Source of the DNA: Cyclobacteriaceae bacterium
GTDB lineage: Bacteria > Bacteroidota > Bacteroidia > Cytophagales > Cyclobacteriaceae
Assembly (NCBI GenBank): GCA_028281285.1
Contig: JANQKF010000022.1
Span: 62,001 to 126,000 of the forward strand
DNA length: 64,000 nucleotides
Direction of reading: 5' to 3'
Position 1 is the stretch's first letter; each line of letters begins with the position of its first letter. Both the position numbers and the translations under genes were made by a program. The notes below the pieces were generated by a model, which saw only the letters and a program-made list of their open reading frames with translations, was not told the DNA's origin and made no database searches. Shown piece after piece: positions 24,464-52,273 of the stretch.

Positions 24464-24486
24464 TTTATGCAACATCGTTGCAAAAA
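24464..24486. promoter_or_regulatory. Candidate Zur box 1 (before COG0523 GTPase)
   Basis: Core TGCAACATCGTTGCA (24468-24482) is an inverted repeat around a central T at 24475, with A/T-rich flanks. It is about 104 bases upstream of the GTPase ATG. Similar sites occur at 31081, 44679, 44721 and 52065. Confidence 0.6.
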
Positions 24487-24585
24487 CAATTTGAGACAAC
24501 TACTTTTGAACCCCCAATGGTGTGGGGCCAGGGAAAGCTTGGAATAGTGAATGGCTTTATAACCTTGAAATCTTTAATCTGACTT

Positions 24586-25791
24586 ATGTTTAATAAACTA
24601 CCAGTTACTGTACTTTCTGGCTTTTTGGGAGCTGGAAAGACCACTTTGCTTAATCATGTATTGCACAATAAGGAAGGAATGCGCGTGGCCGTAATCGTCA
24701 ATGACATGAGTGAAGTCAATATCGATGCCGAGCTTGTGAAGCAAGGGAATACACTTAGCCGCACGGATGAGAAGCTGGTGGAAATGAGTAATGGCTGTAT
24801 CTGTTGTACACTTAGGGAAGACTTAATTGAAGAAGTAGCTAAGCTTGCTCTTGAAAAGAAATACGATTATCTGCTGATAGAGAGCACTGGAATTTCAGAA
24901 CCCCTACCAGTGGCCCAGACCTTTTGGTTTGAGAGCGATGAGTTAGAAGTAAATCTTTCGGATGTGTGTCAATTGGATACCATGGTCACCGTAATCGATG
25001 CTTTTAACTTTCTGAAAGACTTTGGATCGGCTGATACTATTGCCAGTCGTGAAATGAATGATGAAGAAGGTGACGAGCGAACCATTGTGAATCTGCTCAC
25101 TGACCAGGTAGAGTTTGCAGATGTGATTCTCATAAACAAGACGGACCTCGTAAGTACAGACGAATTGAATCTACTTAAGGGAATGATTACCAAGTTAAAC
25201 CCCAAAGCAAGATTAATAGAGACTCAATTTGGGAAAGTAGCATTGGATAAGATTCTAGATACGGGGCGCTTCGATTATGAAACTACCTCTCAGTCGGCCG
25301 GATGGATTCAGGAATTGGAGAACGAACATACTCCTGAAACCGAAGAGTACGGTATTGGGTCTTTCGTTTTCCAAAGTCAGAAACCTTTTCACCCAGAGCG
25401 CTTTTGGCAATACGTTTCAATGCTTTGGCCGAGTAATATAATCCGAAGTAAAGGACTATTCTGGATTGCTTCGAGGTCCGACCAGGCCTTATCATGGAGT
25501 CAGGCAGGCGGTTCGTTGAGGGCCGATGCTGCCGGGGTTTGGTGGTGCTCTATGCCCTATGAACAGCGAATCCGATATGAGGCATTTGTCGAAAACAGGG
25601 ACGAAATAGAATCGAGATGGGATAAGGATTTCGGTGATCGTAAAAGTGAATTAGTGATCATTGGGCAAGTTCTGGACAAAGAACAGATCACCAAACAATT
25701 GAATGAGTGCCTATGTACGGATGAGGAGCTGTTTATGTGGCGAAATGGCGAACACTTCAAAGATCCCTGGCCAGTCGAACGTTGGGATTGA
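24586..25791 (+). CDS. COG0523/CobW GTPase, ZigA-type zinc metallochaperone
   Basis: G3E-family GTPase of 401 residues. Walker [10 protein letters not shown] is at 12-20, the metal-binding CxCC motif GCICC at 70-74, the Walker B-like [20 protein letters not shown] follows, and the specificity motif NKTDL. The CobW C-terminal domain starts at about 280 ([20 protein letters not shown]) and ends in a segment with NECLCTDEE. The length and C-terminus resemble the longer ZigA/YeiR-like proteins that deliver zinc under deficiency. A palindromic site resembling the other four in this window lies about 104 bases upstream, consistent with Zur control. It is monocistronic as far as can be seen. Zinc as the metal is inferred from family and context. 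Confidence 0.92.
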
Positions 25792-25920
25792 CCAATAGTC
25801 TTTTTAGCTGAGGTTATGAGGATCTGGAATATTAAGAAACAGTAAAATTTCTCAAGTGGCAGTGCATGCCTGTGTTTTACTCCCTATTTTGACCTTAGTT
25901 TGAACTATCTTCGTCTTATC

Positions 25921-26685
25921 ATGAAGCGACTAGTCTCCAAAACAAAGTGGCCAGGGATATGCCTTGTATTGTTGATCTCATGTTCGAGTCCTTCTGAATA
26001 CGATCTGTCCTATTCCTGGTCTCCGGTTAAAATCAGTCCTGACATTGCCGCTTCGGACCAAGTGGAGGCCATAATATCACCTTATAGGAGCCAACTGGAT
26101 TCTATTATGAACGAGGTGATTGGCTATGCTGCTCATGATTTAACCTCACAGGGACAATATGAGTCTACCTTGGGGACCTTTGTCACAGAACTTCTATTGA
26201 CGCAATCGATTTCCGCATATGATCTGGATGTTGATGTAGCAATCATGAATCATCGCGGAGGACTCAGAGCCCCGATAAATCGAGGTCCTATTACACTTGG
26301 TGAAGTCTTTGAAGTAATGCCATTTGAGAATCAAATGATTTTGCTCGAAATGTCAGGCGAAACTTTGTTAGAGGTGGTTGAGCATATTGGCAAATCCGGG
26401 AGGAGCATGATATGGCCAGTGAGCTTTCGTGTGACTGAGTCTGGGCTGAAAAACATTCGATTGAATGGCAAAAGGATAATCGAAGATCAAAACTATATCT
26501 TATCGATCAGTGATTATCTTGCTAATGGGGGAGGTGGTTTCGAGATGTTGAGGCCTCTTAAAAAATTAGACATCAAACCAATTATGTTAAGGGACATGAT
26601 TGTTCAGGAAATCAAACAGCGTGCGGCAAAAGGTGATTCGATAAAAGCAGAATTGGCAAATCTCGTAACCGTTTCAGAACAATGA
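25921..26685 (+). CDS. 5'-nucleotidase C-terminal-domain lipoprotein
   Basis: A 254-residue lipoprotein corresponding to the substrate-binding C-terminal half of UshA-type 5'-nucleotidases. The start at ATG 25921 gives a lipoprotein signal with lipobox LISC, better than a TTG seven codons upstream. Family motifs are the NHRGGLRAPINRGPITLGEV segment, VMPFENQMILLEMSGETLLE, and the nucleobase-binding end YILSISDYLANGGGGFEML. It overlaps the next gene by 4 bases (ATGA), and that gene encodes the catalytic metallophosphatase half, so the two proteins should assemble into one enzyme. Order is reversed compared with the fused enzyme (C-terminal half first). Confidence 0.9.
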   Translation: MKRLVSKTKWPGICLVLLISCSSPSEYDLSYSWSPVKISPDIAASDQVEAIISPYRSQLDSIMNEVIGYAAHDLTSQGQYESTLGTFVTELLLTQSISAYDLDVDVAIMNHRGGLRAPINRGPITLGEVFEVMPFENQMILLEMSGETLLEVVEHIGKSGRSMIWPVSFRVTESGLKNIRLNGKRIIEDQNYILSISDYLANGGGGFEMLRPLKKLDIKPIMLRDMIVQEIKQRAAKGDSIKAELANLVTVSEQ

Positions 26686-27599
26686 AAAGAAGACAATTCA
26701 TCCTACGATCTTTGGCTGCATCTGCTTCCGTGGCAGTTTCACCACTTGTATTGAGCAGTTGTCAACCGAACTTAAACGGACGGAAACTGACCATTCTGCA
26801 CACTAACGATATGCACTCTCATATAGATCCATTTAAGGAAGGACGAAACAAAGGAATGGGAGGGATGGCAGCACGGGCAAGCGCCATCGAGAAAATAAGA
26901 GCGACTGAGGATAATGTGCTTTTGCTTGATGTGGGTGACGTGTTTCAGGGAACTCCTTATTTCAATATGTTTGGCGGAGAGCTGGAATTGAAGCTAATGA
27001 GTGAAATGGGTTATGATGCCACGACTGTCGGTAATCATGAATTTGATAATGGTCTGGACGGACTGGATCATGCGATGCAATTCGCAAACTTTCCTTATCT
27101 CAGTGCTAATTATGATTTTTCTAAAACCATCATTGCTCAAAAGGTCCGATCTTATCAGGTATTCAATAGAGGCGGGGTGAAAATTGGCATATTCGGACTT
27201 GGAGTAGGGCTCCAAGGTATGGTGAACCCGGCTTTGAGCGGAAATACAGTATATCTTGACCCTATTACTGTTGCAAAAGAAATGGTTCAGGAGTTGAAAG
27301 CGCAAAAGTGCGATCTAATTATTTGTCTTTCTCATATCGGTTATGAGTATGGTAATTCGGCTATTCCGTCCGATAAAAGGCTCGCACAAGAGGTGAGTGA
27401 GATCGATGTGATTCTTGGAGGACATACGCATACATTCATGGATGAACCGCTTCTCCTGACCAATAGTGAAGGATATACAACTACGATTAATCAGGTAGGT
27501 TGGGCAGGGATTAATCTGGGAAGAATAGATGTCGAGTTTACAGCAAAAGGGAAGGGTATGGTTGCTTATAACCCTATTCTTCTTTCGAATAAGGCCTGA
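26682..27599 (+). CDS. 5'-nucleotidase catalytic (metallophosphatase) subunit
   Basis: A 305-residue metallophosphoesterase, the catalytic half of an UshA-type 5'-nucleotidase. It begins with a twin-arginine-like KRRQFILRSLAASA and a lipobox (LSSC), suggesting Tat export and lipidation. Metal-binding motifs in order are: LHTNDMHSHIDP, LLLDVGDVFQGTPYF, VGNHEFDNGLDGL, CLSHIGYEYG and ILGGHTHTFM, which together give the complete dinuclear site. It overlaps the preceding substrate-binding gene by 4 bases. Tat export would fit metal loading in the cytoplasm. Nucleotide specificity is inferred from the family. Confidence 0.92.
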   Translation: MKRRQFILRSLAASASVAVSPLVLSSCQPNLNGRKLTILHTNDMHSHIDPFKEGRNKGMGGMAARASAIEKIRATEDNVLLLDVGDVFQGTPYFNMFGGELELKLMSEMGYDATTVGNHEFDNGLDGLDHAMQFANFPYLSANYDFSKTIIAQKVRSYQVFNRGGVKIGIFGLGVGLQGMVNPALSGNTVYLDPITVAKEMVQELKAQKCDLIICLSHIGYEYGNSAIPSDKRLAQEVSEIDVILGGHTHTFMDEPLLLTNSEGYTTTINQVGWAGINLGRIDVEFTAKGKGMVAYNPILLSNKA

Positions 27600-27623
27600 T
27601 CACAGCAAATAAGCATTGAGGAC

Positions 27624-29705
27624 ATGAAGAATACACTTTTCAGCAACCAGCTTCTAAAAATTGTCCTTATAATAAGGCTTGAACTCCTACAAAAATCTTT
27701 GTTTTTTTTCTTATTTGTTGGGTTGTTTTCAACACTTTATGGTCAACAAAGAGCCTATAAAGTGCCTCAATTCGCCAAAGATTGGGGCAAACCGGGTCAA
27801 CACCCGGATCATATTATTTTAAACTATGGACAAAATCCCGCAACCTCTGCAAGTGTTACCTGGAGAACTGCACAAGAAATAGCCGTTGGATATGCAGAAA
27901 TAGCAGTAGCAACAGCTGCTCCAAAATTTTGGAGAAATGCGAAGACTATTAAAGCAAAGACTGAGGTTTTAGATGCTTCCGAGGTAAAAGATGCCAGCGT
28001 GATCTCTAATTATCACTCTGTGACATTTGAAGACCTTCAAGCTCAGACGGTGTATGCTTACAGAGTGGGTGATGGAAAAATATGGAGTGAGTGGATCCAG
28101 TTCAAAACCGCTGCCGATAGAGAGGCTCCGTTCTCTTTTTTGTATGTAGGAGACGCACAAAATTACATTTTGGAGTTATGGTCTAGATTGATAAGAGAAG
28201 GGTACCGGAAAGGGCCAGATGCAAGCTTTATTATACATGCCGGAGACTTGATAAATCATGCACATAGTGAACGTGAATGGCACGAATGGTTTACTGCAGG
28301 CGGCTGGATCCATAGAATGCTGCCTTCCATCCTTGTTCCAGGAAATCATGAGTATGGAAGCCTTTCAACCGAAAGTATAGATAGAAAGCTATCAGTACAG
28401 TGGAATCCACAGTTTACTTTGCCTGAAAATGGTATAGAAGGTTTAGAGGAAACGAACTATTATATCGATCATCAAGGTATGCGTATCATTGCCTTGAACA
28501 GCTTAGAAAAGTTTGAAGAACAGACAGAATGGCTGGAAAAAGTGTTGGCTGACAACCCTAATAAATGGACAGTAGTTACCTATCATCATCCTCTATATTC
28601 AGCTTCTGACGGAAGGGCCAATGACGAATTAAGGAGCTTATGGAAGCCTTTGTTTGACAAATATAAAGTCGACCTTGCACTACAAGGGCACGATCACAGT
28701 TATGCCAGAGGACGTGTTGAGCCTTATTTGGCTGAGGGAGAAGAGAATGTCCTGGATGGCTTGAATATGAGGGATTATACCGGAACGGTGTATGTGGTAT
28801 CTGTGAGTGGTGGTAAGATGTACACCTTAAGGTCAAATGCCTGGGATGATTGGGATGAGGCCGAGCGCGATCGTGCGGCAGAAAATACACAGCTGGTTCA
28901 GCTAATCGATGTGGATGGAGATAAACTCTCCTACCAGTCGTTTACCGCTACAGGTGAGCTCTACGATGCTTTTGATTTGATCAAACAACCAGACGGAAAA
29001 CCGAATAAATTTATAGAAAGAAGAGGTTATGCCATCGATGAGAGACGGCACGACAATACGATTTCTTATGATGATCAATTACCTCCTGATGTCAAAACGG
29101 AAATCGAAAAAAAATATGAGAGTTACGAGATCGTCAGCGTAAGGCTGGTAGATAATGCCGAGCACAAAGGGTATTACGCTCAGCTTAGAGATGGTAGAAA
29201 TAGGCTTGACCTGACCATTTCCTCATCGGGTGAAATACTCAAAGCCATCAATCAACAATTGAGGTATTCACAAAGCGAGGTGGAATACAATTCTGATAAT
29301 CAACTCTTGACCTACAACCTCAGGCTTTTCTTAACTGATGTAAACGAAGCGCTTGGGTTAGATCCCCAAAGCAATGAGCTGGCTTTCGGCCAATCCGATG
29401 AGTCACCTCGTGCCAATCGAATGCTATTAGACTATCTCAACCAATTATTTCATATAAAAGTCAATGGACAAGACATGCAGCTGCAGATTAAATCAAAGCA
29501 ACTATCCGGGGAAGGAGATAACACTGCCTTATCGGTTTACTTTGAATATCAGCAATCATCACCATTGACATCGCTGGAAATCAAAAATGCAGTTTTTACC
29601 GATCTCTTCCCTAACCAAAACAATATCGTCTATGTCAACTTCGACAAAAAATCTAAAGTTCTGGTGCATAATAAGAAAACCCATACGCATCAATTAGACT
29701 TTTGA
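27624..29705 (+). CDS. Purple-acid-phosphatase-like enzyme fused to PepSY-like and DUF6702 domains
   Basis: A 693-residue exported protein. A long signal peptide ends near STLYGQ (about 41). An N-terminal Fn3-like domain (about 50-155) is followed by a metallophosphoesterase domain with FLYVGDAQNY, IIHAGDLINHAHSE, LVPGNHEYGS, VVTYHHPLYS and LQGHDHSYARGR, the full purple-acid-phosphatase ligand series. Residues about 485-540 form a PepSY-like segment (DVKTEIEKKYESYEIVSVRL). The last ~150 residues are a DUF6702 domain (LFLTDVNEALGLDPQSNELA, SGEGDNTALSVYFEYQQSSP) closely similar to the separate protein at 32563. The first ~525 residues closely resemble the paralog at 33802. No frameshift is needed to explain the fusion. 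Confidence 0.9.
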   Translation: MKNTLFSNQLLKIVLIIRLELLQKSLFFFLFVGLFSTLYGQQRAYKVPQFAKDWGKPGQHPDHIILNYGQNPATSASVTWRTAQEIAVGYAEIAVATAAPKFWRNAKTIKAKTEVLDASEVKDASVISNYHSVTFEDLQAQTVYAYRVGDGKIWSEWIQFKTAADREAPFSFLYVGDAQNYILELWSRLIREGYRKGPDASFIIHAGDLINHAHSEREWHEWFTAGGWIHRMLPSILVPGNHEYGSLSTESIDRKLSVQWNPQFTLPENGIEGLEETNYYIDHQGMRIIALNSLEKFEEQTEWLEKVLADNPNKWTVVTYHHPLYSASDGRANDELRSLWKPLFDKYKVDLALQGHDHSYARGRVEPYLAEGEENVLDGLNMRDYTGTVYVVSVSGGKMYTLRSNAWDDWDEAERDRAAENTQLVQLIDVDGDKLSYQSFTATGELYDAFDLIKQPDGKPNKFIERRGYAIDERRHDNTISYDDQLPPDVKTEIEKKYESYEIVSVRLVDNAEHKGYYAQLRDGRNRLDLTISSSGEILKAINQQLRYSQSEVEYNSDNQLLTYNLRLFLTDVNEALGLDPQSNELAFGQSDESPRANRMLLDYLNQLFHIKVNGQDMQLQIKSKQLSGEGDNTALSVYFEYQQSSPLTSLEIKNAVFTDLFPNQNNIVYVNFDKKSKVLVHNKKTHTHQLDF

Positions 29706-29780: not shown

Positions 29781-30278
29781 CTAGTTTAGTCTCAGGTACT
29801 CAGTACAAATCAAATCGGAATAGATTTTGGTAAAAGCATTGTTCTGTTGATTGTAAACCATACCATTGATTTCAACCGATTTTTCCAACAACCATCTTAG
29901 CTCAAGACTCAATTCTTTGATTTTCTTATTCAAATGATAGGATAGCAACAAGTGTTGTTGATTGCAGGTCTGCCAACACTCTTCCGCATATTCCTTTTGT
30001 CTCAAAAGTTGATTGTAAAATTTGGTTAACCCCCTGATCATTGAAAACTCCTGGTCGCCAAGGGCATCAAGTATTATTCGATTATTGTCTGAAAGGATAA
30101 AGGTGATTTCAGTGATATTTCTGGTTTCTAGAAGTTTAGTTATCTGCCCCACTATATTTGAATCGAATGTCATCGAATTGCCAAGAGAAGTACAAAAGTA
30201 GTTTTCTTGATAATTCTCATTATCAATAACTCTTTCCAGGTAATCAGTGGGGCAGACAAAGTATAGGTGACCCTTCAT
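29781..30278 (-). CDS. Uncharacterised protein cotranscribed with LCIB-type carbonic anhydrase
   Basis: A 165-residue cytoplasmic protein I do not recognise with confidence. The N-terminal half (HLYFVCPTDYLERVI, YFCTSLGNSMTFD, EITFILSDNNRIILDAL) looks alpha/beta. Its arrangement, a Cys-bearing strand then a helix then another strand, loosely recalls a beta-carbonic-anhydrase fold. The C-terminal half is helical (QQHLLLSYHLNKKIKELSLE). It begins 19 bases after the LCIB-like gene stop, so the two form an operon probably controlled by the palindrome at 31081. No catalytic motif can be assigned; a zinc-linked role is suggested only by context. Confidence 0.7.
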   Translation of the reverse strand: MKGHLYFVCPTDYLERVIDNENYQENYFCTSLGNSMTFDSNIVGQITKLLETRNITEITFILSDNNRIILDALGDQEFSMIRGLTKFYNQLLRQKEYAEECWQTCNQQHLLLSYHLNKKIKELSLELRWLLEKSVEINGMVYNQQNNAFTKIYSDLICTEYLRLN

Positions 30279-30297: not shown

Positions 30298-31011
30298 CTA
30301 GAGACTTTTGAGGTCCATCACTTCAAAATTTCGTGCATCAAAGTAGTCATCCAGTCCATAATCGGTGTTGATAATGATACCTCCCAAAAGGGTGACTTTA
30401 TCCACAGGGAATTCATCTTTGCACGATTTTATATGCTCATGAATTTTTTTGTCAATAATATCGTATGTGGCATCAGTAATGGCCTTGGCTTGATTATCAC
30501 TATTGAGGACTTCCTCCCTATAGGGCAACAAGCTTTCCTCCAACTTCATTTGTTGGTAGTCATCATCGTTCAAAATCGGTCGATATCCTTGGTCTTGAAG
30601 TCGGCTAAGTGCCAGCATTAGTGCTCCGCATGAGTTGCCTGTGTCTTCCTGACGAGGCCGATACATTTTGCCTAATTCACCATCAAGAGTGATCCCAATG
30701 TGTGGCCCATAAAAAATAAAGGCACTTCCATCATCGGGAATATGATGAGCAAATGCCGTCATGCCTGTCTGTCCTACAAAGGGTAAGCCTCCAAGCCCTC
30801 CCATGATGAATGGGCCAAACAATACATTGAAGAATGTAGTGGAAGGGACGTTAATATCATCTGAACATACCGATGTGGCCATTAACACCTTGGAAATGTC
30901 AATACCGTGCTCGATTTGCATTTTCCCGAGGTAGTGGATTGAAGTGTCTTTAGCATCCATTGCCTCAGGAAAAAACCCCTTAACAATCCTATCAAACTTT
31001 CTCTGTAGCAT
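30298..31011 (-). CDS. LCIB/C-type (theta-class) carbonic anhydrase-like protein
   Basis: A 237-residue protein of the limiting-CO2-inducible B/C carbonic anhydrase family. The family blocks are clear: MATSVCSDDIN (44-54), MGGLGGLPFVGQTGMTAFAHH (70-90), YGPHIGITLDGELGKMYRP (101-119) and GNSCGALM (125-132). C49, H104 and C128 are the expected zinc ligands. The Arg usually found just after the Cys-x-Asp pair in family members I recall (CRDEITR) is a Val here, so activity needs testing. The start at 31011 is fixed by a stop codon two codons upstream. It heads a two-gene operon and lies about 70 bases downstream of a candidate Zur box. Reversible CO2 hydration is inferred. Confidence 0.85.
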   Translation of the reverse strand: MLQRKFDRIVKGFFPEAMDAKDTSIHYLGKMQIEHGIDISKVLMATSVCSDDINVPSTTFFNVLFGPFIMGGLGGLPFVGQTGMTAFAHHIPDDGSAFIFYGPHIGITLDGELGKMYRPRQEDTGNSCGALMLALSRLQDQGYRPILNDDDYQQMKLEESLLPYREEVLNSDNQAKAITDATYDIIDKKIHEHIKSCKDEFPVDKVTLLGGIIINTDYGLDDYFDARNFEVMDLKSL

Positions 31012-31080: not shown

Positions 31081-31103
31081 TTTTTGCATCATTGTTGCAA
31101 AAA
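31081..31103. promoter_or_regulatory. Candidate Zur box 2 (before carbonic anhydrase-like operon and dipeptidase)
   Basis: Core TGCATCATTGTTGCA (31085-31099) with T/A-rich flanks; 11-base arms matching at 10 positions around the central T at 31092. It lies about 70 bases upstream of the LCIB-like gene (minus) and 175 bases upstream of the dipeptidase (plus), so it could serve either. Confidence 0.65.
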
Positions 31104-31277: not shown

Positions 31278-32543
31278 ATGCTTACTATTAAAATCAAGAA
31301 TATTCCTGTCTTATGTCTTTTGATTGCACTGGTTGTCAGTGGTTGTTCAGGAAATCAAACAGCTAATGAAACGGAAGAAGAGTTGATTGAAAGAGCTCTT
31401 GCAATTCATGATCGAATACTAACACTTGATACGCATGCCGATACACCGTTGCGTATGATCCAGCCAGGTTTCGACATGGCTGAGCGTCATGATCCTAACG
31501 AAACAGGCTCAAAGGTGGACTACCCAAGGATGAAAGAAGGTGGGCTAGACGGTATTTTCTTTGCGGCATTTGTTGCGCAGGATATTCGTGATGATGATGG
31601 CAACTCTCGCGCCAAGGCCCTATGCCTTCAGATGATCGATTCAATTAGGACATCCACCGAAAGAAATTCGGACATCGTAGGATTGGCCCTCGACCCAGAC
31701 GATGCCTATGCTCTTGAAAAGGACGGTAAGCGCGCCATTTATATTGGCATTGAAAACGGTTATCCGATCGGAAAAGATATTTCCAATGTCGAGCTCTATT
31801 ATGAAAAAGGGGTGCGTTATATCACATTGGTACATTCCTCAAATAACGACCTTGCGGATTCTGCCACTGACCCGAATGGTGCTGAGCATGGTGGGATCAG
31901 TGACTTTGGGGAGCAGGTAGTTAAGGAGATGAACCGTTTAGGTATTATGGTCGATGTTTCGCACGGCAATGACAGTGTATTTTATGATGCGATTGCAATG
32001 TCTGAAGCTCCGATTATCGCCAGTCACTCGAATGCCCGCGCGGTAACCGAACATAATCGAAATATGACTGACGAAATGTTGAGATTAATGGCGAAGAATG
32101 GTGGAGTTGTGCAATTGACCATGCTAGGTATATATCTAAGGGATACACCACCAAACCCTGAGAAAGAAGCTGCTATGGACTCACTTCTTAAAAGTTTGAA
32201 ACCCCGCGATCAGATGACGCAAGAAGATGCAACTGCTGCCAGACAAGCGTTCAATGATATTAACGCGAAATACCCAGATCCACCGGCTACTGTCAAGCAT
32301 GTTGTAGATCATATTGATCATATTGTTAAGATAGCCGGTATTGACCATGTCGGTATTGGGTGTGATTTCGATGGAGGTGGCGGAATTGAAGGTGTATGGG
32401 ATGCGAGTGAAGTGATGAATATTACCATTGAACTTGTAAGACGAGGCTATTCTGAAGAGGACATTGAAAAAATCTGGGGTGGAAACCTGGTTCGAGTCTT
32501 TAAAGAAGTTCAGGCAATTGCAAAAAGGATTCAATCCGAATAA
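31278..32543 (+). CDS. Membrane dipeptidase (peptidase family M19), lipoprotein
   Basis: Zinc dipeptidase of 421 residues, exported as a lipoprotein (lipobox VSGC, cleavage before Cys23). M19 features: TLDTHADTPLRM (first metal site HxD), the bridging glutamate in YIGIENGYPIG, MVDVSHGND, IASHSNARAVTEHNRN, and IGCDFDGGGGIEGV near the C-terminus, ending with the family's IWGGNLVRVF. It is probably attached to the inner or outer membrane facing the periplasm and cleaves dipeptides. It is divergent from the LCIB-like operon across a 266-base gap with the palindrome, and its own zinc dependence fits a zinc theme, although regulation is inferred. Confidence 0.95.
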   Translation: MLTIKIKNIPVLCLLIALVVSGCSGNQTANETEEELIERALAIHDRILTLDTHADTPLRMIQPGFDMAERHDPNETGSKVDYPRMKEGGLDGIFFAAFVAQDIRDDDGNSRAKALCLQMIDSIRTSTERNSDIVGLALDPDDAYALEKDGKRAIYIGIENGYPIGKDISNVELYYEKGVRYITLVHSSNNDLADSATDPNGAEHGGISDFGEQVVKEMNRLGIMVDVSHGNDSVFYDAIAMSEAPIIASHSNARAVTEHNRNMTDEMLRLMAKNGGVVQLTMLGIYLRDTPPNPEKEAAMDSLLKSLKPRDQMTQEDATAARQAFNDINAKYPDPPATVKHVVDHIDHIVKIAGIDHVGIGCDFDGGGGIEGVWDASEVMNITIELVRRGYSEEDIEKIWGGNLVRVFKEVQAIAKRIQSE

Positions 32544-32562
32544 TTTAGCTTGGTAAATCTAT

Positions 32563-33087: not shown

Positions 33088-33088
33088 G

Positions 33089-42746: not shown

Positions 42747-42813
42747 AATCCATTCGAGGCTCAGGTAAAGAAAGAGACTTTTCGGCTCACTGGAGGTGAG
42801 ATAAATATTATGT

Positions 42814-42845: not shown

Positions 42846-42894
42846 GCATTTTCTTAAAAAGGCAGTTTACCTGGAGAAAGGTCTGACAACTCTG

Positions 42895-44663: not shown

Positions 44664-44678
44664 GAATAATAAATCTAC

Positions 44679-44701
44679 TTTTTGCAATATTGTTGCAAAA
44701 A
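44679..44701. promoter_or_regulatory. Candidate Zur box 3 (immediately before merC)
   Basis: Core TGCAATATTGTTGCA (44683-44697) with TTTT/AAAA flanks; 11-base arms match at 10 positions around T44690. It lies 16 bases before the merC ATG, an ideal place for repression. Confidence 0.7.
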
Positions 44702-44720: not shown

Positions 44721-44735
44721 TGCAACATAGTTGCG
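44721..44735. promoter_or_regulatory. Candidate Zur box 4 (between merC and propeller protein C)
   Basis: TGCAACATAGTTGCG: perfect GCAAC/GTTGC arms around ATA, centred 38 bases from box 3. It is weaker in the flanks than box 3. It may give cooperative repression of merC or reach the divergent gene at 44901. Confidence 0.5.
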
Positions 44736-44900
44736 TATGATTTGATGACCGGAAAAGTCAAATGGACGAGAACCTATGAGAACTTTACCTGATATTTTGA
44801 GGTCAATGAACGCATTTGTATTTGCTATTTGCCATCACCGAAAATTCGATTCTCTTCAATCAGGGAATTGATTATATTCCTAACATCAACCTTAATTGCC

Positions 44901-47900
44901 ATGAAAAAAATTCTAAGCCTAACACTTCTAATCTGCCTCATCTGCTTTTCTTCCGAAGCTCAGAGACGCAAGGCCAAAAAACAGGATAACACCTTAGCCT
45001 ATGAAGAAAAACTCTATGAGGGTATTCAGTGGAGGTCCATCGGTCCTTATCGTGGTGGTCGGGCTGGTACTGTGAGTGGAGTCGTAGGAAATAACAACCT
45101 CTACTATATGGGTACTGCGGGTGGGGGAGTTTGGAAGACTGAGGATGCGGGTAACTCCTGGACATGTATCTCCGATGGCTACTTTGGCGGATCTATTGGT
45201 GCAGTGGCTGTTTCGACTTCCGATCCTAACGTGATCTATGTAGGTGAAGGAGAACAAACGCTTCGAGGTAATGTCTCATCCGGAAAAGGCCTTTGGCGAT
45301 CCACAGATGGTGGTGAAACCTGGAATTTCCTTGGTTTAGAAGAATCAGAGCATATTGCCAGGATCAGAATTCATCCTACGAATCCGGATATTGTATATGT
45401 GGCTGCCATAGGAAATCTTTGGAAACCTAATGAGCAAAGGGGTGTCTTTCGATCTACCGATGGTGGCAAAACCTGGGAGAAGATTTTATACGTAAGTGAT
45501 AAGGCAGGAGCAGGAGACCTGATTCTCGATCCAAACAATCCAAGGATTATCTATGCCGCTTCCTGGCAAATGAAAAGAAACGGATACCGCATGGATAGTG
45601 GAGGGCCGGATAGTAAGCTATTCATGAGTAGGGATGGAGGCGATAGTTGGACTGAGATTACCAAGAACCCTGGCCTTCCGGAGGGGCCCTGGGGTATCGT
45701 TGGTATTGCAGTTTCACCTGTCAATTCCAAAAGAATCTGGACGATCATAGAAGCTGAAGATGGTGGGGTATTCCGATCAGACGATGGGGCAAAAACATGG
45801 AGAAAGGTCAATGAAAACAGAGCTCTGCGTCAAAGAGCATGGTACTACAGCCGTATTACCGCGGATACTCAAAATGAAGACATTGTTTACGTGATGAACG
45901 TAAGCTACGGTATATCAAGAGATGGAGGCGAGACTTTCGAACTAAGAAATGCGCCCCATGGCGACCATCATGATCTCTGGATTGACCCCAACAACAATCA
46001 ACGAATGGTTATTGCTGATGATGGAGGTGCCCAGGTATCAAATGATGGCGGTGAAAACTGGACGACTTATCACAACCAACCTACAGCTCAATTTTATCGA
46101 GTAACCACAGATGATGTATTCCCTTATAGAATTTACGGTGCGCAGCAAGACAACACTTCGGTAAGAATTCAGCATAGAACTTCTGCAAATAATATCAACG
46201 AAAGGCATTGGGAACCTTCAGCTGGAGGTGAAAGTGCCCATTTGGCACCTGATCCGAAAAATCCGGAGGTGGTATATGGAGGAACCTACAAGGGCTATAT
46301 GATGCGCTTGGATCATTCAACCGGGCAAGTGAGGTCTACGAATGTTTGGCCAGATAACCCTGCTGGTTCAGGTGTTGAAGTAATGAAATACCGATTCAAC
46401 TGGAATTACCCGGTATTCTTTAGTCCGCACGACCCAAACAAGTTGTATGCGGGTTCAAATTTCCTTCATGTTTCTACTAACGAGGGTCAATCCTGGGAAG
46501 TGATTTCCCCTGACTTGACACGGGGAGAACCCGAGACGCTTAAATCTTCAGGAGGACCAATCACACAGGATAACACGGGAGTAGAGTTCTATGGGAATAT
46601 CTTTTCGGGTGAAGAATCAGAACAGGAAGAGGGAGTGATCTGGGTAGGTAGTGATGATGGCTTGGTGCATGTGACTCGAGATGGAGGAAAAACCTGGAAG
46701 AATGTTACACCTCCTATGTCGCCAAAACAGAATATGATCAATTGCATTGATGTCAATCCTCACAAAAATGGTGGGGCTTATGTCGCGGCAACTTCCTACA
46801 AATTCGGGGATTATACACCTTATCTCTATAAAACAGAGGATTATGGCGAAACCTGGCAATTGATCACTAATGGAATCAAGTCTACCAACTATACTCGTGC
46901 CATAAGAGCGGATCTGATGCGTGCAGGCTTGTTGTACGCAGGTACTGAGTGGGGTATGTATATTTCATTTGATGACGGAGAATCCTGGCAGCCCTTTCAG
47001 CTCAACCTTCCAATAGTCAGTATTCGCGATTTACATGTGAAGAATAATGATTTGATTGCGGCAACGCACGGAAGGAGTTTTTGGATGATCGATGACTTAA
47101 CTCCATTGCACCAACTTTCGGATGAAGTAACGAACGCAAGTCATTATCTCTTCAAGCCCAAGGACAGCTATCGAATGCAAGTTGGCGGTAGAGGAGGTGG
47201 AAAGTCTGTTGGACAAAACCACCCTAATGGTGTAATCTTTAATTTCTATCTCAACGCACTAAATGAGAATGATGATGTCTCTTTGCATATCCTGGAAATG
47301 GATGGTGACACAATTCAATCATACAGCAGCAAATCCAAAGACCGAAAAACCAGACTAACCGCAAAATCAGGAGGCAATACTTTTGTTTGGGACATGCGCT
47401 ATCCTGGATTTACAGAGTTTGACGGTATGATTCTGTATAGTTCGCCAAATAATGGCCCTAAAGCAGTTCCTGGAACTTACAAAGCTGTGTTGTCTGTAAA
47501 CAATGAGCCAGTGTCTCAAGATTTTAACATCGTTAAGGATCCTCGACTGCCAAATACTCAGGAAGATTACCGAAAGCAATTTGATTATCTGATTTCTGTC
47601 AGGGATAAGGTGAGTGAGGCCCATGAGGCAATCATCCGTATCAGAAAGACGAGAGACATTTTGGAGTATATCAAAGAGAAGGTGGGAGAGACCAAGTCAG
47701 CTGAAGAAGTGGTGAAATTGACCAACGAACTGGATGCTGAAATGGGGGTTATAGAGAACAACATTCATATGACCAAAAATCAGAGTTATCAGGACCCACT
47801 AAACTTTGGAATTCGAATAAACAATCGAATCGCATTCTTAATGGCCGATCAGCAAAGAGGCGATTATCCTCCAACTGATCAGGCTGTTGAATTCAGGGAT

Positions 47901-48014
47901 GAGGTATTTAAAGAGCTCGACAAAGAGCTATTGAATTTGAATTCGCTGCTCAACGAGAAAATCACAGCAATCAACCAAAAGTTGAGTCAATTGGGGATTA
48001 AGATGATCAATTAG
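44901..48014 (+). CDS. VPS10/sortilin-like BNR-repeat propeller protein C
   Basis: A 1037-residue exported protein. The start at ATG 44901 begins the signal peptide (MKKILSLTLLICLICFSSEA); an in-frame ATG 24 codons upstream adds non-signal sequence. The opening WRSIGPYRGGRAGTVSGVVG, the Asp-box repeats ([49 protein letters not shown]), the FVWDMRYPGFTEF motif and the C-terminal helical region make it the closest of the three propeller proteins to A. It is divergent from merC; two palindromes lie in the shared 237-base gap. A zinc-controlled surface protein is possible but inferred. Confidence 0.87.
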   Translation: MKKILSLTLLICLICFSSEAQRRKAKKQDNTLAYEEKLYEGIQWRSIGPYRGGRAGTVSGVVGNNNLYYMGTAGGGVWKTEDAGNSWTCISDGYFGGSIGAVAVSTSDPNVIYVGEGEQTLRGNVSSGKGLWRSTDGGETWNFLGLEESEHIARIRIHPTNPDIVYVAAIGNLWKPNEQRGVFRSTDGGKTWEKILYVSDKAGAGDLILDPNNPRIIYAASWQMKRNGYRMDSGGPDSKLFMSRDGGDSWTEITKNPGLPEGPWGIVGIAVSPVNSKRIWTIIEAEDGGVFRSDDGAKTWRKVNENRALRQRAWYYSRITADTQNEDIVYVMNVSYGISRDGGETFELRNAPHGDHHDLWIDPNNNQRMVIADDGGAQVSNDGGENWTTYHNQPTAQFYRVTTDDVFPYRIYGAQQDNTSVRIQHRTSANNINERHWEPSAGGESAHLAPDPKNPEVVYGGTYKGYMMRLDHSTGQVRSTNVWPDNPAGSGVEVMKYRFNWNYPVFFSPHDPNKLYAGSNFLHVSTNEGQSWEVISPDLTRGEPETLKSSGGPITQDNTGVEFYGNIFSGEESEQEEGVIWVGSDDGLVHVTRDGGKTWKNVTPPMSPKQNMINCIDVNPHKNGGAYVAATSYKFGDYTPYLYKTEDYGETWQLITNGIKSTNYTRAIRADLMRAGLLYAGTEWGMYISFDDGESWQPFQLNLPIVSIRDLHVKNNDLIAATHGRSFWMIDDLTPLHQLSDEVTNASHYLFKPKDSYRMQVGGRGGGKSVGQNHPNGVIFNFYLNALNENDDVSLHILEMDGDTIQSYSSKSKDRKTRLTAKSGGNTFVWDMRYPGFTEFDGMILYSSPNNGPKAVPGTYKAVLSVNNEPVSQDFNIVKDPRLPNTQEDYRKQFDYLISVRDKVSEAHEAIIRIRKTRDILEYIKEKVGETKSAEEVVKLTNELDAEMGVIENNIHMTKNQSYQDPLNFGIRINNRIAFLMADQQRGDYPPTDQAVEFRDEVFKELDKELLNLNSLLNEKITAINQKLSQLGIKMIN

Positions 48015-48108: not shown

Positions 48109-49023
48109 TCAATTATTTGCATGGGAATTGACACTGATTTTGATTGCTTTTTCGAGTAATGATGGCTCACTCCCCGGGCCAATTGCCAGCAATTTTGGAC
48201 CGGTGGTTGGTATGGAGTAAAACGGTCTGACGCGTATTTGACGATCCGGAGTACGCTCGAAGTAGGTATATCCAGCTTCCTTTCCGATTCGAGTGCATCC
48301 CTTTACTCTAAGGATGCTTCTTGGGAGTGCCTCGCAAATCGCATAAATACATTCTTCATTCGGCAAGTCAGGTAGGTCGACAGAACAAGAAGACCAATGT
48401 GCTTTCAAATGGTCAAGTTTTTTCGCCTTGTTTTCAGATGGCAGAAGTTTAGGCAACAGGGCAACATCAACCTCGTCCATAGTGATTATGTCTGCAACCG
48501 GATTGAGCGTTTTAATCTGTTCAATTACCGCTGCTTGGCGATCTTTAGATGAGTTTTCAGTATGAGTTAAAACAATCAAGGAAGATACCTGAATCTGATT
48601 TGCCTCAAGTTCGTTGTGTTTGTCACGTTTTTGCCAATTCTTGACATCAACTACTGAAACTTGTATAGGGGGTAAAAAGCGATCGTTGATACCAACTCCA
48701 AGGAAGCCCATTAGCGAACACGCATCTGAAGTTCCATTGGCTTCGATCAGAGTTATGCCATTCTTTCTTTCCGGAATAGTGTTAACAAAGTACCTGAGTT
48801 CATCAATTCCGCTGCAGCAAATACAACTGCCATTCAGCGGAATGAGGTGTTTTGGTTCGAGCTGATCAATAAATTGTTGTGCATCCAGACTGGCGTTTTC
48901 ATAATCATTGAGTATGATGTATGGTTGCCAACCTTCCTTTAAAAAATTGGTGGTTAGGTATTTTAGCAAGGTGGTTTTGCCGGCACCTAAAAAACCCACT
49001 ACAGTAACAATGGCTTCCATCAC
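48109..49023 (-). CDS. Second COG0523/CobW-type GTPase
   Basis: A 304-residue G3E-family GTPase, shorter and diverged from the one at 24586. Walker [10 protein letters not shown] is at 10-18; the CxCC metal motif is SCICC at 66-70; LIEANGTSDACSLMGFLGVG takes the place of the usual ESTGxxxP loop; and a CobW C-terminal-like segment contains ILRVKGCTRIGKEAGYTYFE. The guanine-specificity motif (NKxD) is replaced by LTHTENSS, which is unusual. It begins 20 bases after the S9 peptidase stop, so it is the second gene of an operon with a Zur-like box upstream. ATG is doubled (MM), leaving the exact start open by one codon. Confidence 0.87.
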   Translation of the reverse strand: MMEAIVTVVGFLGAGKTTLLKYLTTNFLKEGWQPYIILNDYENASLDAQQFIDQLEPKHLIPLNGSCICCSGIDELRYFVNTIPERKNGITLIEANGTSDACSLMGFLGVGINDRFLPPIQVSVVDVKNWQKRDKHNELEANQIQVSSLIVLTHTENSSKDRQAAVIEQIKTLNPVADIITMDEVDVALLPKLLPSENKAKKLDHLKAHWSSCSVDLPDLPNEECIYAICEALPRSILRVKGCTRIGKEAGYTYFERTPDRQIRVRPFYSIPTTGPKLLAIGPGSEPSLLEKAIKISVNSHANN

Positions 49024-49043: not shown

Positions 49044-51887
49044 TTACTTCCACTTTGGTAGAGTTCTTTTACCTTGCTCTTCCTTGTTTGGAGTATATGG
49101 AAGCTCCTCAGTCATCCATTTCTTTATTTCAGCCCCTTTCAGGTAATGATCGAAATAATCCATTAGTCTTATTTGAATATCAAGTCGGTTGCTTTCTTTT
49201 CTCAAACCGTGACCTTCACCCAGGTAAGAGAGAAAAACCACAGGCTTTTTCAGATAACGCAGGATGCTGTAAAAGCCGAATGAATGTTCCCATTGGACTA
49301 CCTTGTCGGCCGTGCCATGGAACAACAATAGGGGAGTGTCCATAGTGGCAGCGTTAAACACCGGTGATTCAGATATATACATTTGAGTATTAGCCGTTGG
49401 GTCTTCAGCGAGCCTTCCTTGTCCGGTCATATAATAGTCTTGTTCATTACTACCGTCTCTGACAATATCGATATTGAATCCTTGCACCAGGTTACTCACA
49501 CCTGCACCTGCAGCAATGGCTGCAAACCGGTTGTTTTGAGTTGACATGTACATTCCGCAGTGTCCTCCAAAACTAAACCCCTCATAGCCAATTTTCTTTT
49601 CATCTACATAACCCAATTCAATTACTTCTTCAATAGCCGCATCGATGGATTCATGCATGTCAGAATGGGGTGTTCCAACATTAAAATGGATATCGGGTCT
49701 AAGAAAGAGATACCCTTGAGAAACGTAGAGCATTTCCGGTACCGAGGCTCCGTTTAGGTAAGGGATAGCATAATTGTACATGCCGGATGAGAGTTTCTCG
49801 TAAGAATAGACGATCATTGGGAGTTTATCCCCAACCTTATAGCCATCGGGTATACTTAATATGCCTTGCAATGGCACTCCATCATCGTTGGTATAGTTGA
49901 TAAGAATGCGTTTGCCCCAATTGTACATTCCCTGTTGTGGATTGGTATTGGTTATTTTTTTGGGTTTCGAAAAATTGCTTTTAGTCAAATAAGCTTCCGG
50001 ATAATTTTGATAGTCACCCTTTTTGTAAATAATCGCATCTGATTTCTCACTTTTGATTATCCCATAGCTACGGTAGGGGTCTGCATACCCAGAAGGCCCG
50101 TAGATGAGTTCCTTAAGTTTTCCTTTTTGTAAGTTATAATAACCAGCATGTTTGTTTTGTGTATTGAAGGCATATAGGAAGTTTGAGGAGGAAAGATCAA
50201 TATAGCGATCCTCGATCTCCGGTTCGGATTTAAAACTGTAGTCTTCAAACCGAAATTGAATTGGATCTTTGGCTGTAACACTGGCCGTGAGATTCTGGGC
50301 CGTGGAACTATCATCTAGTGGCAGAAGCCATAGATCATGCTTGTGGTTAACAATCACCGCATTTTGATCTTTGACCCAACCCACAAAGCCATAACTGGGA
50401 GTTTGGCCATACAGATCATACTCTTTGTTGACAAAAGAAACATTCAGCCCCTTTGAAATATTCCGCTTTGAATCGCTAGAAAAATCATGGTGCCAAAAGT
50501 GTCCTGCATCCCACAGAATTGCGCTCTCACCATCAGGAGAAACTTCAGCACTTATTCTCCATCCTGAGTCATACTTCTTATGAATAAGTTTTTTCTCTCC
50601 AGTCATTAGGTTGACCCGGTATAGGTCGTCCTTATTGATGTCCCAGTCAGAAATGTATTCACGGTTGTCCGTACCAATTGCCCACTTATCTGTGCCCTTA
50701 CTTCGGATCAGCCGTTGGAGCTCGTCACTTGTTAGTTGAATCAGCCGATTTGAGTTGGGAAAAAATACGGCATCAAAGACTTTATTCGTAGTGTTTTCGC
50801 TGTCCATGATTCGTTCGGAAAGCAGTTTTTTGTCTTTCCAATGCCATACCTGCACTGTCGATCCTTCTTTGCCATCTTCGTGTACAAGATCTTCCTCTTT
50901 ATCTTCCCCGTACTCTCTGATTTTAATAAATAGGCGTTCACCATCATTGCTCCAGGTTATGCTATTAGAGAATCTTCCTGACTTAACAGCTGGCCCCATA
51001 TTTTCTGGCAGACCTTCCATATCGCTTACCGGGTGCTCTCTGGTCTGGTAAGTGTCGGTGTCAATTCCGGATACTAAAACCACCTTCATATTAGCGTAGT
51101 CGATCTTATCCTCGGCTTTGTTGTACTTATAAGCGGCAAGCGCATTTCGTTCATTGTTCCATGCCAGGTTCGAATAAATGAAACTGCCGGTTTGCAGGGC
51201 CCTAGTGGTCATTTTGGCTGCGTCATAAAGGTAAATTCCATTCCCACGTTTATCCTCCGATGTGATGGTGTATGCGATATAGGTTGACTTTTCATCTACG
51301 AGGTATTCGCCAATGTTACCGATATAATGCTCTCTTCGATTATCTAAATCATAGACCAAAATATTGTCGTCATCGCTGGTGACAAAGTAGTTGCTGTCCT
51401 CAAGAAACTCATAGCTTACATTAGCTTCGTACTTGACCGCAAAACCAGATTCCAGATGCCTGAGCTCAATGAATATCTTGTCATCACTATCCTCGCCCTC
51501 CTTGTCATCTTCCTTTTCTTCGGTAATGCGATATGCGATCCAATCCGATTCTTCAGAGAATATTGGATCACTCCCTTTCGGTATTTTATACTTGACCTGG
51601 CCCCTGGCATTACTAATGTAAAGCACATCGGTTTGGTTGTCTTCCGTATAGAGCACCTTCACTTTTTCTGTAGCACCGTCCTTGGCTGTATCCTTTTTAT
51701 CAGGTGTATCGAATAGACTATAAAGGGTGGTATACCATTCACCATTGTCCGATAAGGTCACTGAATGAGTCCTCCATTGCCTTATATCATCAAATGAAAG
51801 AGGCACTTTATTCGTTTGAGCACTAACATTGTTGTTTCCTCCTATTACCAGGAGCACGATTAAACTAAACGGGACAAAAGATCGCAT
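49044..51887 (-). CDS. S9-family (prolyl oligopeptidase-type) serine peptidase
   Basis: A 947-residue exported peptidase. Signal peptide about 1-23 (VSAQ). A long beta-propeller-like region (about 30-660) is followed by an alpha/beta-hydrolase domain with nucleophile S772 in GFSFGG, D861 in HGTADKVVQWEHS, and H893 in LGEGHGLRKE. The propeller holds an acidic insert around residues 120-135 (EEKEDDKEGEDSDD). It resembles dipeptidyl-peptidase/acylaminoacyl-peptidase members that trim peptides outside the cytoplasm. It is the first gene of an operon with the second CobW GTPase; a Zur-like palindrome lies about 180 bases upstream. Confidence 0.92.
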   Translation of the reverse strand: MRSFVPFSLIVLLVIGGNNNVSAQTNKVPLSFDDIRQWRTHSVTLSDNGEWYTTLYSLFDTPDKKDTAKDGATEKVKVLYTEDNQTDVLYISNARGQVKYKIPKGSDPIFSEESDWIAYRITEEKEDDKEGEDSDDKIFIELRHLESGFAVKYEANVSYEFLEDSNYFVTSDDDNILVYDLDNRREHYIGNIGEYLVDEKSTYIAYTITSEDKRGNGIYLYDAAKMTTRALQTGSFIYSNLAWNNERNALAAYKYNKAEDKIDYANMKVVLVSGIDTDTYQTREHPVSDMEGLPENMGPAVKSGRFSNSITWSNDGERLFIKIREYGEDKEEDLVHEDGKEGSTVQVWHWKDKKLLSERIMDSENTTNKVFDAVFFPNSNRLIQLTSDELQRLIRSKGTDKWAIGTDNREYISDWDINKDDLYRVNLMTGEKKLIHKKYDSGWRISAEVSPDGESAILWDAGHFWHHDFSSDSKRNISKGLNVSFVNKEYDLYGQTPSYGFVGWVKDQNAVIVNHKHDLWLLPLDDSSTAQNLTASVTAKDPIQFRFEDYSFKSEPEIEDRYIDLSSSNFLYAFNTQNKHAGYYNLQKGKLKELIYGPSGYADPYRSYGIIKSEKSDAIIYKKGDYQNYPEAYLTKSNFSKPKKITNTNPQQGMYNWGKRILINYTNDDGVPLQGILSIPDGYKVGDKLPMIVYSYEKLSSGMYNYAIPYLNGASVPEMLYVSQGYLFLRPDIHFNVGTPHSDMHESIDAAIEEVIELGYVDEKKIGYEGFSFGGHCGMYMSTQNNRFAAIAAGAGVSNLVQGFNIDIVRDGSNEQDYYMTGQGRLAEDPTANTQMYISESPVFNAATMDTPLLLFHGTADKVVQWEHSFGFYSILRYLKKPVVFLSYLGEGHGLRKESNRLDIQIRLMDYFDHYLKGAEIKKWMTEELPYTPNKEEQGKRTLPKWK

Positions 51888-52273
51888 ATGAATTCAATTT
51901 ATACAGGCTTCTAAATCTATTATTTATTTTACGATAAGTGAGCTTTTTCTATATCCATTCCAATGGTTGGTTTGATGGCCGTCATCATAGTCTGGTCAAG
52001 ATTCAATTTTGTTCCTTTTTATAGCCACAACCAGTGAAAGAGTCTCAATATAGGGCTAATTCCATTATATGCATCGTTGTTGCATAAACTGAATTCATTG
52101 TTTAACAGCACTTAGAGTCAATCAATTTGGATGATTGAATATCCCAAACTGGACCCAAGCAAGGTTTGAGATCACTAAATCGAGACTAAAGGCAAATAAC
52201 TTAAGATTAACCCATTCATCGGCACTGACTTTTTGCAATACAAAAATCAATCACCAATGTTAGGGACATTTAA
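51888..52273. other. Intergenic region upstream of the S9 peptidase operon
   Basis: A 386-base gap between the rRNA methyltransferase stop and the S9 peptidase start. It contains the palindrome at 52065-52087. I see no longer coding frame, RNA gene or convincing TAnnTTTG element; the half next to the methyltransferase (52090-52273) is featureless to me. Confidence 0.5.
52065..52087. promoter_or_regulatory. Candidate Zur box 5 (before S9 peptidase-CobW operon)
   Basis: Core TGCATCGTTGTTGCA (52069-52083) around a central T at 52076, with TATA/TAAA flanks. It is about 180 bases upstream of the peptidase start, the most distant of the five sites, and the weakest in arm symmetry beside box 4. Confidence 0.5.

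What the first reader, a model, noticed from the sequence alone, without database searches (positions are those of the whole stretch)
24464..52087. A ~28 kb zinc-starvation island defined by a recurring TGCAACA-T-TGTTGCA palindrome
Five intergenic palindromes share the same core around a central T: 24468, 31085, 44683, 44721 and 52069. They sit before a CobW/COG0523 GTPase, an LCIB-type carbonic anhydrase operon (and divergent M19 dipeptidase), merC (twice), and an S9 peptidase-CobW operon. Two COG0523 GTPases, a MerC and several zinc enzymes in one stretch fit a Zur regulon. The palindromes are seen directly; the regulator and zinc response are inferred. Including VPS10-like proteins and an LCIB-type enzyme in such a regulon would be new to my knowledge.
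Basis: partly seen in the sequence, partly recalled or inferred. Interest (0 to 1): 0.8.

Follow-up and report, generated by a model that had tools for sequence, protein, structure and literature searches.

The report
Zinc-starvation regulon with new carbonic anhydrases
Five matching DNA palindromes in this marine bacterium look like switches of a zinc-shortage programme that is shared by many ocean Bacteroidota, and among the switched genes is an algal-type carbonic anhydrase next to a carbonic-anhydrase-like protein that seems to have no zinc site.

Summary
The five palindromes are real and are the window's five best sites: 7-1-7 inverted repeats, consensus TAWWTGCAACA-N-TGTTGCAWWTA. Comparative scans make them the likely operator of a Zur-type (zinc uptake regulator) system. 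A box lies 13-19 bp before a ZIP zinc transporter gene in 14 of 15 tested genomes of the genus, before merC in 21 of 30 loci and upstream of ZigA-like GTPases in 17 of 25 (reversed-pattern control 0 for both), and before LCIB-type carbonic anhydrase or at its operon head in 37 of 67 named Bacteroidota loci by matrix. Box density follows a Zur orthologue. The regulator is probably an unlinked canonical Zur (contig C40); a sensor-eroded paralogue (C38) sits among boxes. My paper searches found no Bacteroidota Zur box and no Zur control of LCIB. Tandem boxes keep 38- or 17-bp steps. The orphan gene after LCIB (29781-30278) is predicted to have a beta-carbonic-anhydrase fold without a conserved zinc site. 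The '28 kb island' is one cluster of a genome-wide regulon and its middle (35.5-44.1 kb) has no box. The zinc response is inferred, not measured.

The parts
24468..24482 (.). Palindromic box 1 (30.3 bits), between PadR/MacB genes and the ZigA-like COG0523 gene
24586..25791 (+). COG0523 GTPase close to zinc metallochaperone ZigA (NCBIfam NF038288: 577 bits, cut-off 600)
24016..24351 (-). PadR-like regulator, divergent from box 1; followed by a MacB/FtsX permease (21360-24023); membership uncertain
25900..29705 (+). Possible continuation of the COG0523 operon: 5'-nucleotidase C-domain, metallophosphoesterase, purple-acid-phosphatase-like + DUF6702 (after a gap of about 108 bp)
   Evidence: operon membership inferred
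31085..31099 (.). Box 2 (30.2 bits), shared by divergent LCIB and M19 operons; about 74 bp before the LCIB start
30298..31011 (-). LCIB-type (theta class) carbonic anhydrase, PF18599; Cys49, His90 and Cys128 align with PtLCIB4/6kfs
29781..30278 (-). Orphan protein (165 aa), relatives follow LCIB in many loci; predicted beta-carbonic-anhydrase fold; no invariant His and one invariant Cys
31278..33673 (+). M19 dipeptidase - DUF6702 - HupE/UreJ_2 operon; same order beside LCIB in a Saprospiraceae MAG (L324)
44683..44697 (.). Box 3 (27.1 bits), at the merC ORF start, just upstream of the start suggested by the alignment
44721..44735 (.). Box 4 (15.1 bits, weak alone), 38 bp from box 3, the commonest tandem step of this regulon
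44253..44687 (-). MerC-family membrane protein (true start probably downstream of the ORF start)
44829..48014 (+). VPS10/sortilin-like protein, divergent from merC; possible member
52070..52084 (.). Box 5 (27.0 bits), 183 bp before the S9 peptidase start
49044..51887 (-). S9 (prolyl oligopeptidase family) peptidase, first gene of the operon after box 5
48109..49023 (-). Second, shorter COG0523 (CobW N-domain) GTPase in the same operon

Best explanation
The palindromes are operators of a Zur-type repressor. When zinc is plentiful, Zn-loaded Zur dimers (P0002, contig C40) bind the 7-1-7 boxes at or close to the promoters and hold the genes off; when zinc falls, Zur releases them. The derepressed set brings zinc in (ZIP, TonB receptors, probably MerC, HupE and ABC systems), allocates it (ZigA-type COG0523 GTPases) and replaces or re-equips zinc-dependent functions (LCIB-type carbonic anhydrase and its beta-CA-fold partner; FolE and PhoX in operons of relatives). 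Tandem boxes 38 or 17 bp apart suggest cooperative loading of two dimers. A second Zur-like protein (P0001), itself behind boxes and lacking sensor ligands, probably tunes or shuts down the response. Shown here: the boxes, their conserved positions before zinc genes, the presence of the regulators, co-occurrence. Inferred: zinc as signal, repression, binding, cooperativity, the role of the paralogue.
For: merC: box within 400 bp upstream in 21 of 30 loci (15 exact; own genome included; 30 of 34 matches had loci), reversed control 0 of 30. ZIP: 27-bp matrix window ends 7-13 bp, the 15-bp core about 13-19 bp, before the start in 14 of 15 genus genomes with a detectable ZIP, scores 18.0-29.1; two of these sites were in the matrix training set; two more genomes by coordinates. 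ZigA-like COG0523: box within the 1.5-kb flank upstream in 17 of 25 loci (8 within 400 bp), control 0. LCIB: pattern within 500 bp in 13 of 69, control 0 of 69; by matrix 24 of 67 direct and 13 more at the operon head, with 17 hits in one 20-bp bin (60-79 bp from matrix end to start). 58 relatives: 226 boxes against 17 control; 0.90/Mb in 47 genomes with a Zur orthologue, 0.30/Mb in 11 without, P=2e-4 (P=0.002 outside the genus). The best PDB matches of P0002 are M. tuberculosis FurB/Zur and E. coli Zur. Boxes lie at or within 31 bp of three Fur-family paralogues, and 6, 17 and 190 bp upstream of the Zur gene of three more distant genomes. 7-1-7 boxes and COG0523, FolE2, carbonic anhydrase and DUF1826 members are reported for other Zur regulons (PMC6103462 and PMC2770081, passages).
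Against: No expression or binding data. The 30 best-scoring Zur loci, including the own one, have no box. Zur presence and box counts do not match perfectly: for example G051 and G038 have 5 and 3 strict sites without a Zur hit, G052 and G058 have Zur and 0 strict sites. G011, with the most similar Zur (88%), has 1 site and no box before ZIP. 30 of 67 LCIB loci have no detectable box. Of the 30 best-scoring ZIP loci of the order only 6 carry a pattern match, 3 of them from the genus, so about 3 of 26 outside it. A stricter pattern over 296 Bacteroidota genomes hits 25 genomes, 32 sites against 11 in the control. Some boxes precede genes with no evident zinc role (DUF5916, LVIVD/Ppx, subtilase). 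P0002 scores far below NCBIfam's Zur cut-off (38 against 167 bits). ZIP, COG0523 and HupE families are not all zinc-specific (recalled).
Confidence: 0.88

Rival explanations
1. The boxes belong to another Fur-family regulator (Fur, PerR or a Mn/Ni/Co sensor) and the genes answer to a metal other than zinc.
For: Fur-family proteins bind similar inverted repeats (recalled); the genome has four Fur-family genes; HupE/UreJ and CobW relatives are also linked to Ni and Co (recalled).
Against: The boxes lie before ZIP in 14 of 15 genus genomes and before ZigA-like genes. P0002 resembles Zur most among solved structures and its presence tracks the boxes. No box with up to one mismatch lies in the fetched stretches around the C9 and C10 Fur genes.
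Confidence: 0.07
2. The motif-linked divergent paralogue (P0001, C38) is the main regulator, and the canonical Zur serves other sites.
For: Autoregulation and adjacency are typical of local regulators; P0001 lies among boxes.
Against: Paralogues of this kind were found in nine genomes, while 48 of 59 genomes have a match to canonical Zur. Of 10 paralogues, 9 lack Cys80 and none has an acidic residue at 108.
Confidence: 0.1
3. The boxes are mobile-element, terminator or other structural repeats with no regulator.
For: Palindromes in intergenic DNA can be such repeats; neighbouring sites occur in tandem.
Against: Positions relative to start codons are conserved across genomes (ZIP, LCIB); the targets are non-randomly zinc-related; conservation fades outside the core and its flanks of about 4 bp.
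Confidence: 0.02

Closest known systems
Zur regulons of other phyla (review PMC6103462, passages seen)
   Same: 7-1-7 palindromic boxes; zinc import, COG0523/YciC chaperones, GTP cyclohydrolase and carbonic anhydrase members
   Different: Box sequence TGCAACA-N-TGTTGCA; an LCIB-type carbonic anhydrase, MerC, ABC-2/DUF3526, M19-DUF6702-HupE and a beta-CA-fold partner as members; a second sensor-eroded Zur paralogue. The review text has no word beginning 'Bacteroid'
ZigA zinc metallochaperone (NCBIfam NF038288)
   Same: Window COG0523a matches over the full length, E=1.5e-173
   Different: 577 bits, just below the equivalog cut-off of 600; 0 of 59 genomes searched pass it
LCIB/LCIC carbonic anhydrases of algae and diatoms (PtLCIB4, 5b5y; 6kfs)
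   Same: PF18599; Cys-His-Cys and the Ser next to the first Cys align with PtLCIB4
   Different: Behind a putative zinc box in marine Bacteroidota and often followed by the orphan beta-CA-fold protein
P. aeruginosa PA4063-PA4066 Zur operon (recalled, not tested)
   Same: ABC ATPase + FtsX/MacB permease + DUF3299-like protein + His-rich protein; 5 of 19 proteins in a scanned set match DUF3299 weakly, best E=0.003 (the call does not name the members)
   Different: Different box; DUF3299 similarity is marginal

Membership tests
Zur (regulator P0002, contig C40) | Fur-family by sequence | tested here: met
   PF01475, 46 bits, cut-off 23
Zur (regulator P0002, contig C40) | Structural Cys4 site and sensor Cys/His ligands | tested here: met
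   In P0002 all present; in the 47 sequences I grouped as canonical: Cys4 47, His93 47, His95 47, Cys80 42, acidic 108 36; ligand roles by analogy to E. coli Zur, recalled
Zur (regulator P0002, contig C40) | Closest solved relatives are Zur proteins | tested here: met
   2o03 FurB/Zur and 4mtd Zur rank first and second of six
Zur (regulator P0002, contig C40) | Passes NCBIfam Zur equivalog cut-off | tested here: not met
   38.1 against 167 bits; the model is probably of the enterobacterial type (recalled)
Zur (regulator P0002, contig C40) | Zinc-dependent operator binding | not testable with these tools
   needs purified protein
Zur regulon | Conserved palindromic box before a zinc importer | tested here: met
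   ZIP in 14 of 15 genus genomes; about 3 of 26 outside the genus
Zur regulon | Box before zinc metallochaperone (COG0523/ZigA) | tested here: met
   17 of 25 loci, control 0
Zur regulon | Box density depends on presence of Zur | tested here: met
   0.90 against 0.30 sites per Mb, P=2e-4, with exceptions
Zur regulon | ZnuABC or zinc-free ribosomal protein paralogues under the box | not tested
   not searched
Zur regulon | Derepression under zinc limitation | not testable with these tools
   needs RNA-seq or reporters
Zur (paralogue P0001, contig C38) | Intact sensor site | tested here: not met
   Cys80->Tyr, His93->Lys, His95->Tyr, 108->Pro; Cys4 kept
ZigA equivalog | NCBIfam cut-off 600 bits | tested here: not met
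   577.2 bits over the full length
LCIB (theta) carbonic anhydrase | PF18599 and metal-ligand residues | tested here: met
   173 bits; Cys49, His90, Cys128 aligned with 6kfs/PtLCIB4; ligand roles recalled
beta-carbonic anhydrase (gene 29781-30278) | beta-CA fold | tested here: met
beta-carbonic anhydrase (gene 29781-30278) | Conserved Cys2His zinc ligands | tested here: not met
   One invariant Cys; no invariant or nearly invariant His in 24 sequences
beta-carbonic anhydrase (gene 29781-30278) | Sequence-level similarity | tested here: not met
   hhalign against the single sequence of E. coli Can: probability 0.1%; no beta-CA in a PDB profile search at E<=10

The most novel reading that the evidence does not exclude
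Under zinc starvation marine Bacteroidota make a paired carbonic-anhydrase module: an LCIB-type enzyme supplied with zinc by a ZigA-type chaperone, plus a beta-CA-fold protein that lacks the usual zinc site and acts either as its obligate subunit or as a metal-free carbonic anhydrase. The module is controlled by a two-Zur circuit in which a sensor-less Zur paralogue, made only in starvation, competes for the boxes.
Probability: 0.25. Interest if true: 0.85.

Novelty: new variant of a known kind. Interest (0 to 1): 0.7.

Why it matters
My searches of the held papers found no described Zur operator for Bacteroidota (listings), a dominant group of marine polymer degraders (recalled). A box defined at base level gives a direct route to the regulon in dozens of marine genomes. 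It links zinc shortage to carbonic anhydrase choice (LCIB) and, in relatives, to PhoX phosphatase in the same gene runs, which bears on zinc-carbon and zinc-phosphorus co-limitation in seawater. The orphan beta-CA-fold protein without a zinc site is a testable candidate for a zinc-sparing enzyme or subunit, and the sensor-eroded Zur paralogue for a starvation-induced antagonist.

Tried and rejected
Considered and rejected: iron, PerR or other Fur-family control; mobile or structural repeats; a purely local 28-kb island; mercury resistance (no mer partner among the annotated neighbours of the window merC; mer genes were not searched for).

Negative or weak results: no box in the 30 best Zur loci. 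A strict pattern (which finds only 3 of the own genome's 13 sites) hits 25 of 296 Bacteroidota genomes, 32 sites against 11 in the control, so many single hits there may be chance. Overlap of the box with a TAnnTTTG -7 element (consensus recalled): 13 of 118 sites on the promoter side against 4 on the other, only suggestive. A MerC alignment gave no searchable stretch. hhalign of the orphan against E. coli Can found nothing. Paper searches for MerC+Zur, PhoX+Zur+carbonic anhydrase, Zur regulon+Bacteroides and the motif letters showed nothing relevant in the rows listed (10 of 91, 2 of 2, 0, 20 of 7,962). Rows dropped: one search used 118 of 176 unique intergenic sites (51 divergent and 7 without a near gene left out), L243 gave no ZIP hit, two of 25 loci had no P-loop found and count as misses, two of 69 loci lacked a full LCIB ORF; alignment A4 left out two short orphan relatives of 25. 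In some searches distances are counted from the matrix end; the 15-bp cores lie 6 bp further off. Training sites and fetched genomes were recounted.
Full report
OBSERVATION. The five palindromes are present at the stated places (the last starts at 52070) and share a 7-1-7 inverted repeat. They are the window's five highest matrix scores; four stand clear of ten random windows, the fourth box (44721) does not by itself. Genome-wide, the strict symmetric pattern TGCAWYRNYRWTGCA occurs 13 times in 5.16 Mb, its reversed control 0 times.

WHERE ELSE IN THE GENOME. Outside the window, boxes lie before a DUF5916 gene (C1), a MacB permease (C4), the LVIVD/Ppx pair (C3, one base off the strict pattern), a TonB receptor (C40) and, on C38, a lipoprotein-Fur-paralogue operon (two boxes, 17 bp apart), a small secreted protein gene that is perhaps DUF3299-like (one mismatch), an ABC-2/DUF3526 transporter operon (two boxes, 40 bp apart) and a ZIP zinc transporter. 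One of the 13 strict sites (C13) lies inside a gene. So the window holds one cluster of a genome-wide regulon. Within the 28 kb, the genes from 35514 to 44094 have no box of their own.

RELATIVES. In 58 relatives the strict pattern occurs 226 times against 17 for the control. Sixty regions around boxes were fetched from 20 of these relatives. The recurrent targets are the ABC-2 transporter, merC, an operon MerC - small secreted protein - His-rich lipoprotein - COG0523, a lipoprotein, TonB receptors, GTP cyclohydrolase I, and Fur-family paralogues. These loci were chosen because they hold a box, so they show the kinds of target, not rates.

RATES FROM GENE-FIRST SEARCHES. merC: 21 of 30 loci have a box (at most one mismatch) within 400 bp upstream, 15 of them exact; control 0; the own merC is one of the 30. 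ZigA-like COG0523 (E<=1e-60): 17 of 25 with a box upstream within the 1.5-kb flank, 8 within 400 bp; control 0. ZIP: in the genus 14 of 15, scores 18.0-29.1 where the 99.9th percentile of shuffled LCIB upstream regions was 12.8, the 15-bp core about 13-19 bp before the start as extrapolated from tblastn; two of these sites were in the training set. Among the 30 best-scoring ZIP loci over the whole order only 6 have a pattern match, three of those from the genus. Canonical Zur gene: 0 of 30, which also serves as a negative control; in three more distant genomes (G024, G023, G052) a box lies 6, 17 and 190 bp before it. LCIB: 2 of 8 in relatives; in 69 loci of named genome records the pattern lies within 500 bp in 13 (8 exact), control 0, and anywhere in 31 loci against 1. 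With the matrix, 24 of 67 have a direct box and 13 more have one at the head of the operon; 17 hits fall in the single 20-bp bin 60-79 bp from matrix end to start (core 6 bp further), against at most 3 in any other bin. The matrix threshold (5.3) is the 99th percentile of composition-shuffled upstream regions. 30 of 67 have no box that I can detect. The contig lengths of DIYO01000001 (Roseivirga sp. UBA6052), DIYF01000008 (Roseivirga sp. UBA6061) and DMST01000135 equal those of G003:C1, G009:C92 and G020:C264, so the genus of the window is one that NCBI labels Roseivirga (inferred).

LCIB NEIGHBOURHOOD. Within 4.5 kb of LCIB (67 loci; labels by best BLAST match to window or regulon proteins) the commonest are the orphan 165-aa gene (25), COG0523 (21), M19 (13), merC (10), the small secreted protein (10) and Zur-like (8). 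Anywhere in the loci there are relatives of a PhoX in 14 (13 of them at 74% identity or more, the query included), of DUF1826 in 9, of DcuC and M20 in 13 each, of DinB in 15, and of HupE and DUF6702 in 14 each. A Saprospiraceae MAG (L324) has the same divergent layout as the window: HupE-DUF6702-M19, boxes, LCIB-orphan. DUF1826 is shown in Zur-regulated COG0523 clusters by Haas et al. 2009 (PMC2770081, figure legend seen). PhoX is, from recall, a zinc-independent phosphatase. Of the 14 PhoX loci, six (L262, L292, L301, L303, L306, L311) have a matrix-scored box (6.0-25.0) before an unbroken same-strand LCIB-to-PhoX run and a seventh (L257) has one at the operon head (18.3); by the plain pattern only L292 and L301 do. 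PhoX control is a good lead, not a result.

REGULATORS. Four Fur-family genes exist. P0002 (C40) has the full sensor and structural ligand set and resembles solved Zur proteins most. A match at E<=0.001 occurs in 48 of 59 genomes, own included; 47 of 58 relatives pass E<1e-20, and these carry 0.90 strict boxes per Mb against 0.30 in the other 11 (P=2e-4; outside the genus P=0.002). P0001 (C38) belongs to a set of 10 divergent paralogues from nine genomes, which I grouped from the tree; all keep the four structural Cys, nine have lost Cys80 and none has an acidic residue at 108. Among the 47 others Cys80 is kept in 42 and an acidic 108 in 36. For L079, L081 (5237) and L083 a box lies at or within 31 bp of the start; for G000, G007 and G009 boxes precede the lipoprotein-paralogue operon; in G002 a box lies 208 bp upstream; in G012 and G027 boxes lie downstream, before the next operon; G021 showed none. 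The DNA-recognition helix (DRxTxYR) is shared by P0001 and P0002, so both may bind the same boxes: the paralogue could be a starvation-induced tuner. That is inference.

BOX GEOMETRY. The consensus from 118 one-sided sites extends to TAWWTGCAACA-N-TGTTGCAWWTA. Of 37 distinct box pairs within 120 bp in all fetched sequence, 20 are exactly 38 bp apart and 7 exactly 17 bp; the control pattern gave none. The merC pair of the window (44683, 44721) has the 38-bp step. This suggests cooperative binding of two dimers, untested.

LITERATURE. In the listings I saw I found no Bacteroidota Zur box, no MerC-Zur link and no bacterial LCIB under Zur (some listings were cut, e.g. 15 of 248 and 10 of 17). Passages were seen in PMC6103462, PMC2770081, PMC9976891, PMC11960050, PMC6613475, PMC7215798 and PMC12891040; no paper was read whole. 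Subscription papers and databases such as RegPrecise were not searched, so absence here is limited.

VERDICT. A Zur regulon with a lineage-specific box and unusual members: a new variant of a known kind. Zinc dependence is strongly implied by the targets but not shown.

Noticed in passing
window 29781-30278 (-): Orphan partner of LCIB with a predicted beta-carbonic-anhydrase fold and no conserved zinc site.
   Followed up: yes
L035:6947-7393 (contig C38): Zur-like paralogue with eroded sensor residues inside a cluster of boxes; present in several relatives.
   Followed up: partly
L292:8304-9989 and 13 further LCIB loci: Relatives of a PhoX-type alkaline phosphatase encoded near LCIB in marine Bacteroidota, in six loci in one run behind a matrix-scored box.
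   Followed up: partly
window 31278-33673; L324; L282: M19 - DUF6702 - HupE/UreJ_2 set conserved beside LCIB; HupE is a candidate metal transporter.
   Followed up: partly
window 54598-59802: Type I polyketide synthase module with a phosphopantetheinyl transferase near the zinc cluster.
   Followed up: no
L110:5080 and L128:4860: Boxes near an alpha-L-fucosidase gene and before a subtilase gene, with no clear zinc link (chance or extracellular scavenging).
   Followed up: no
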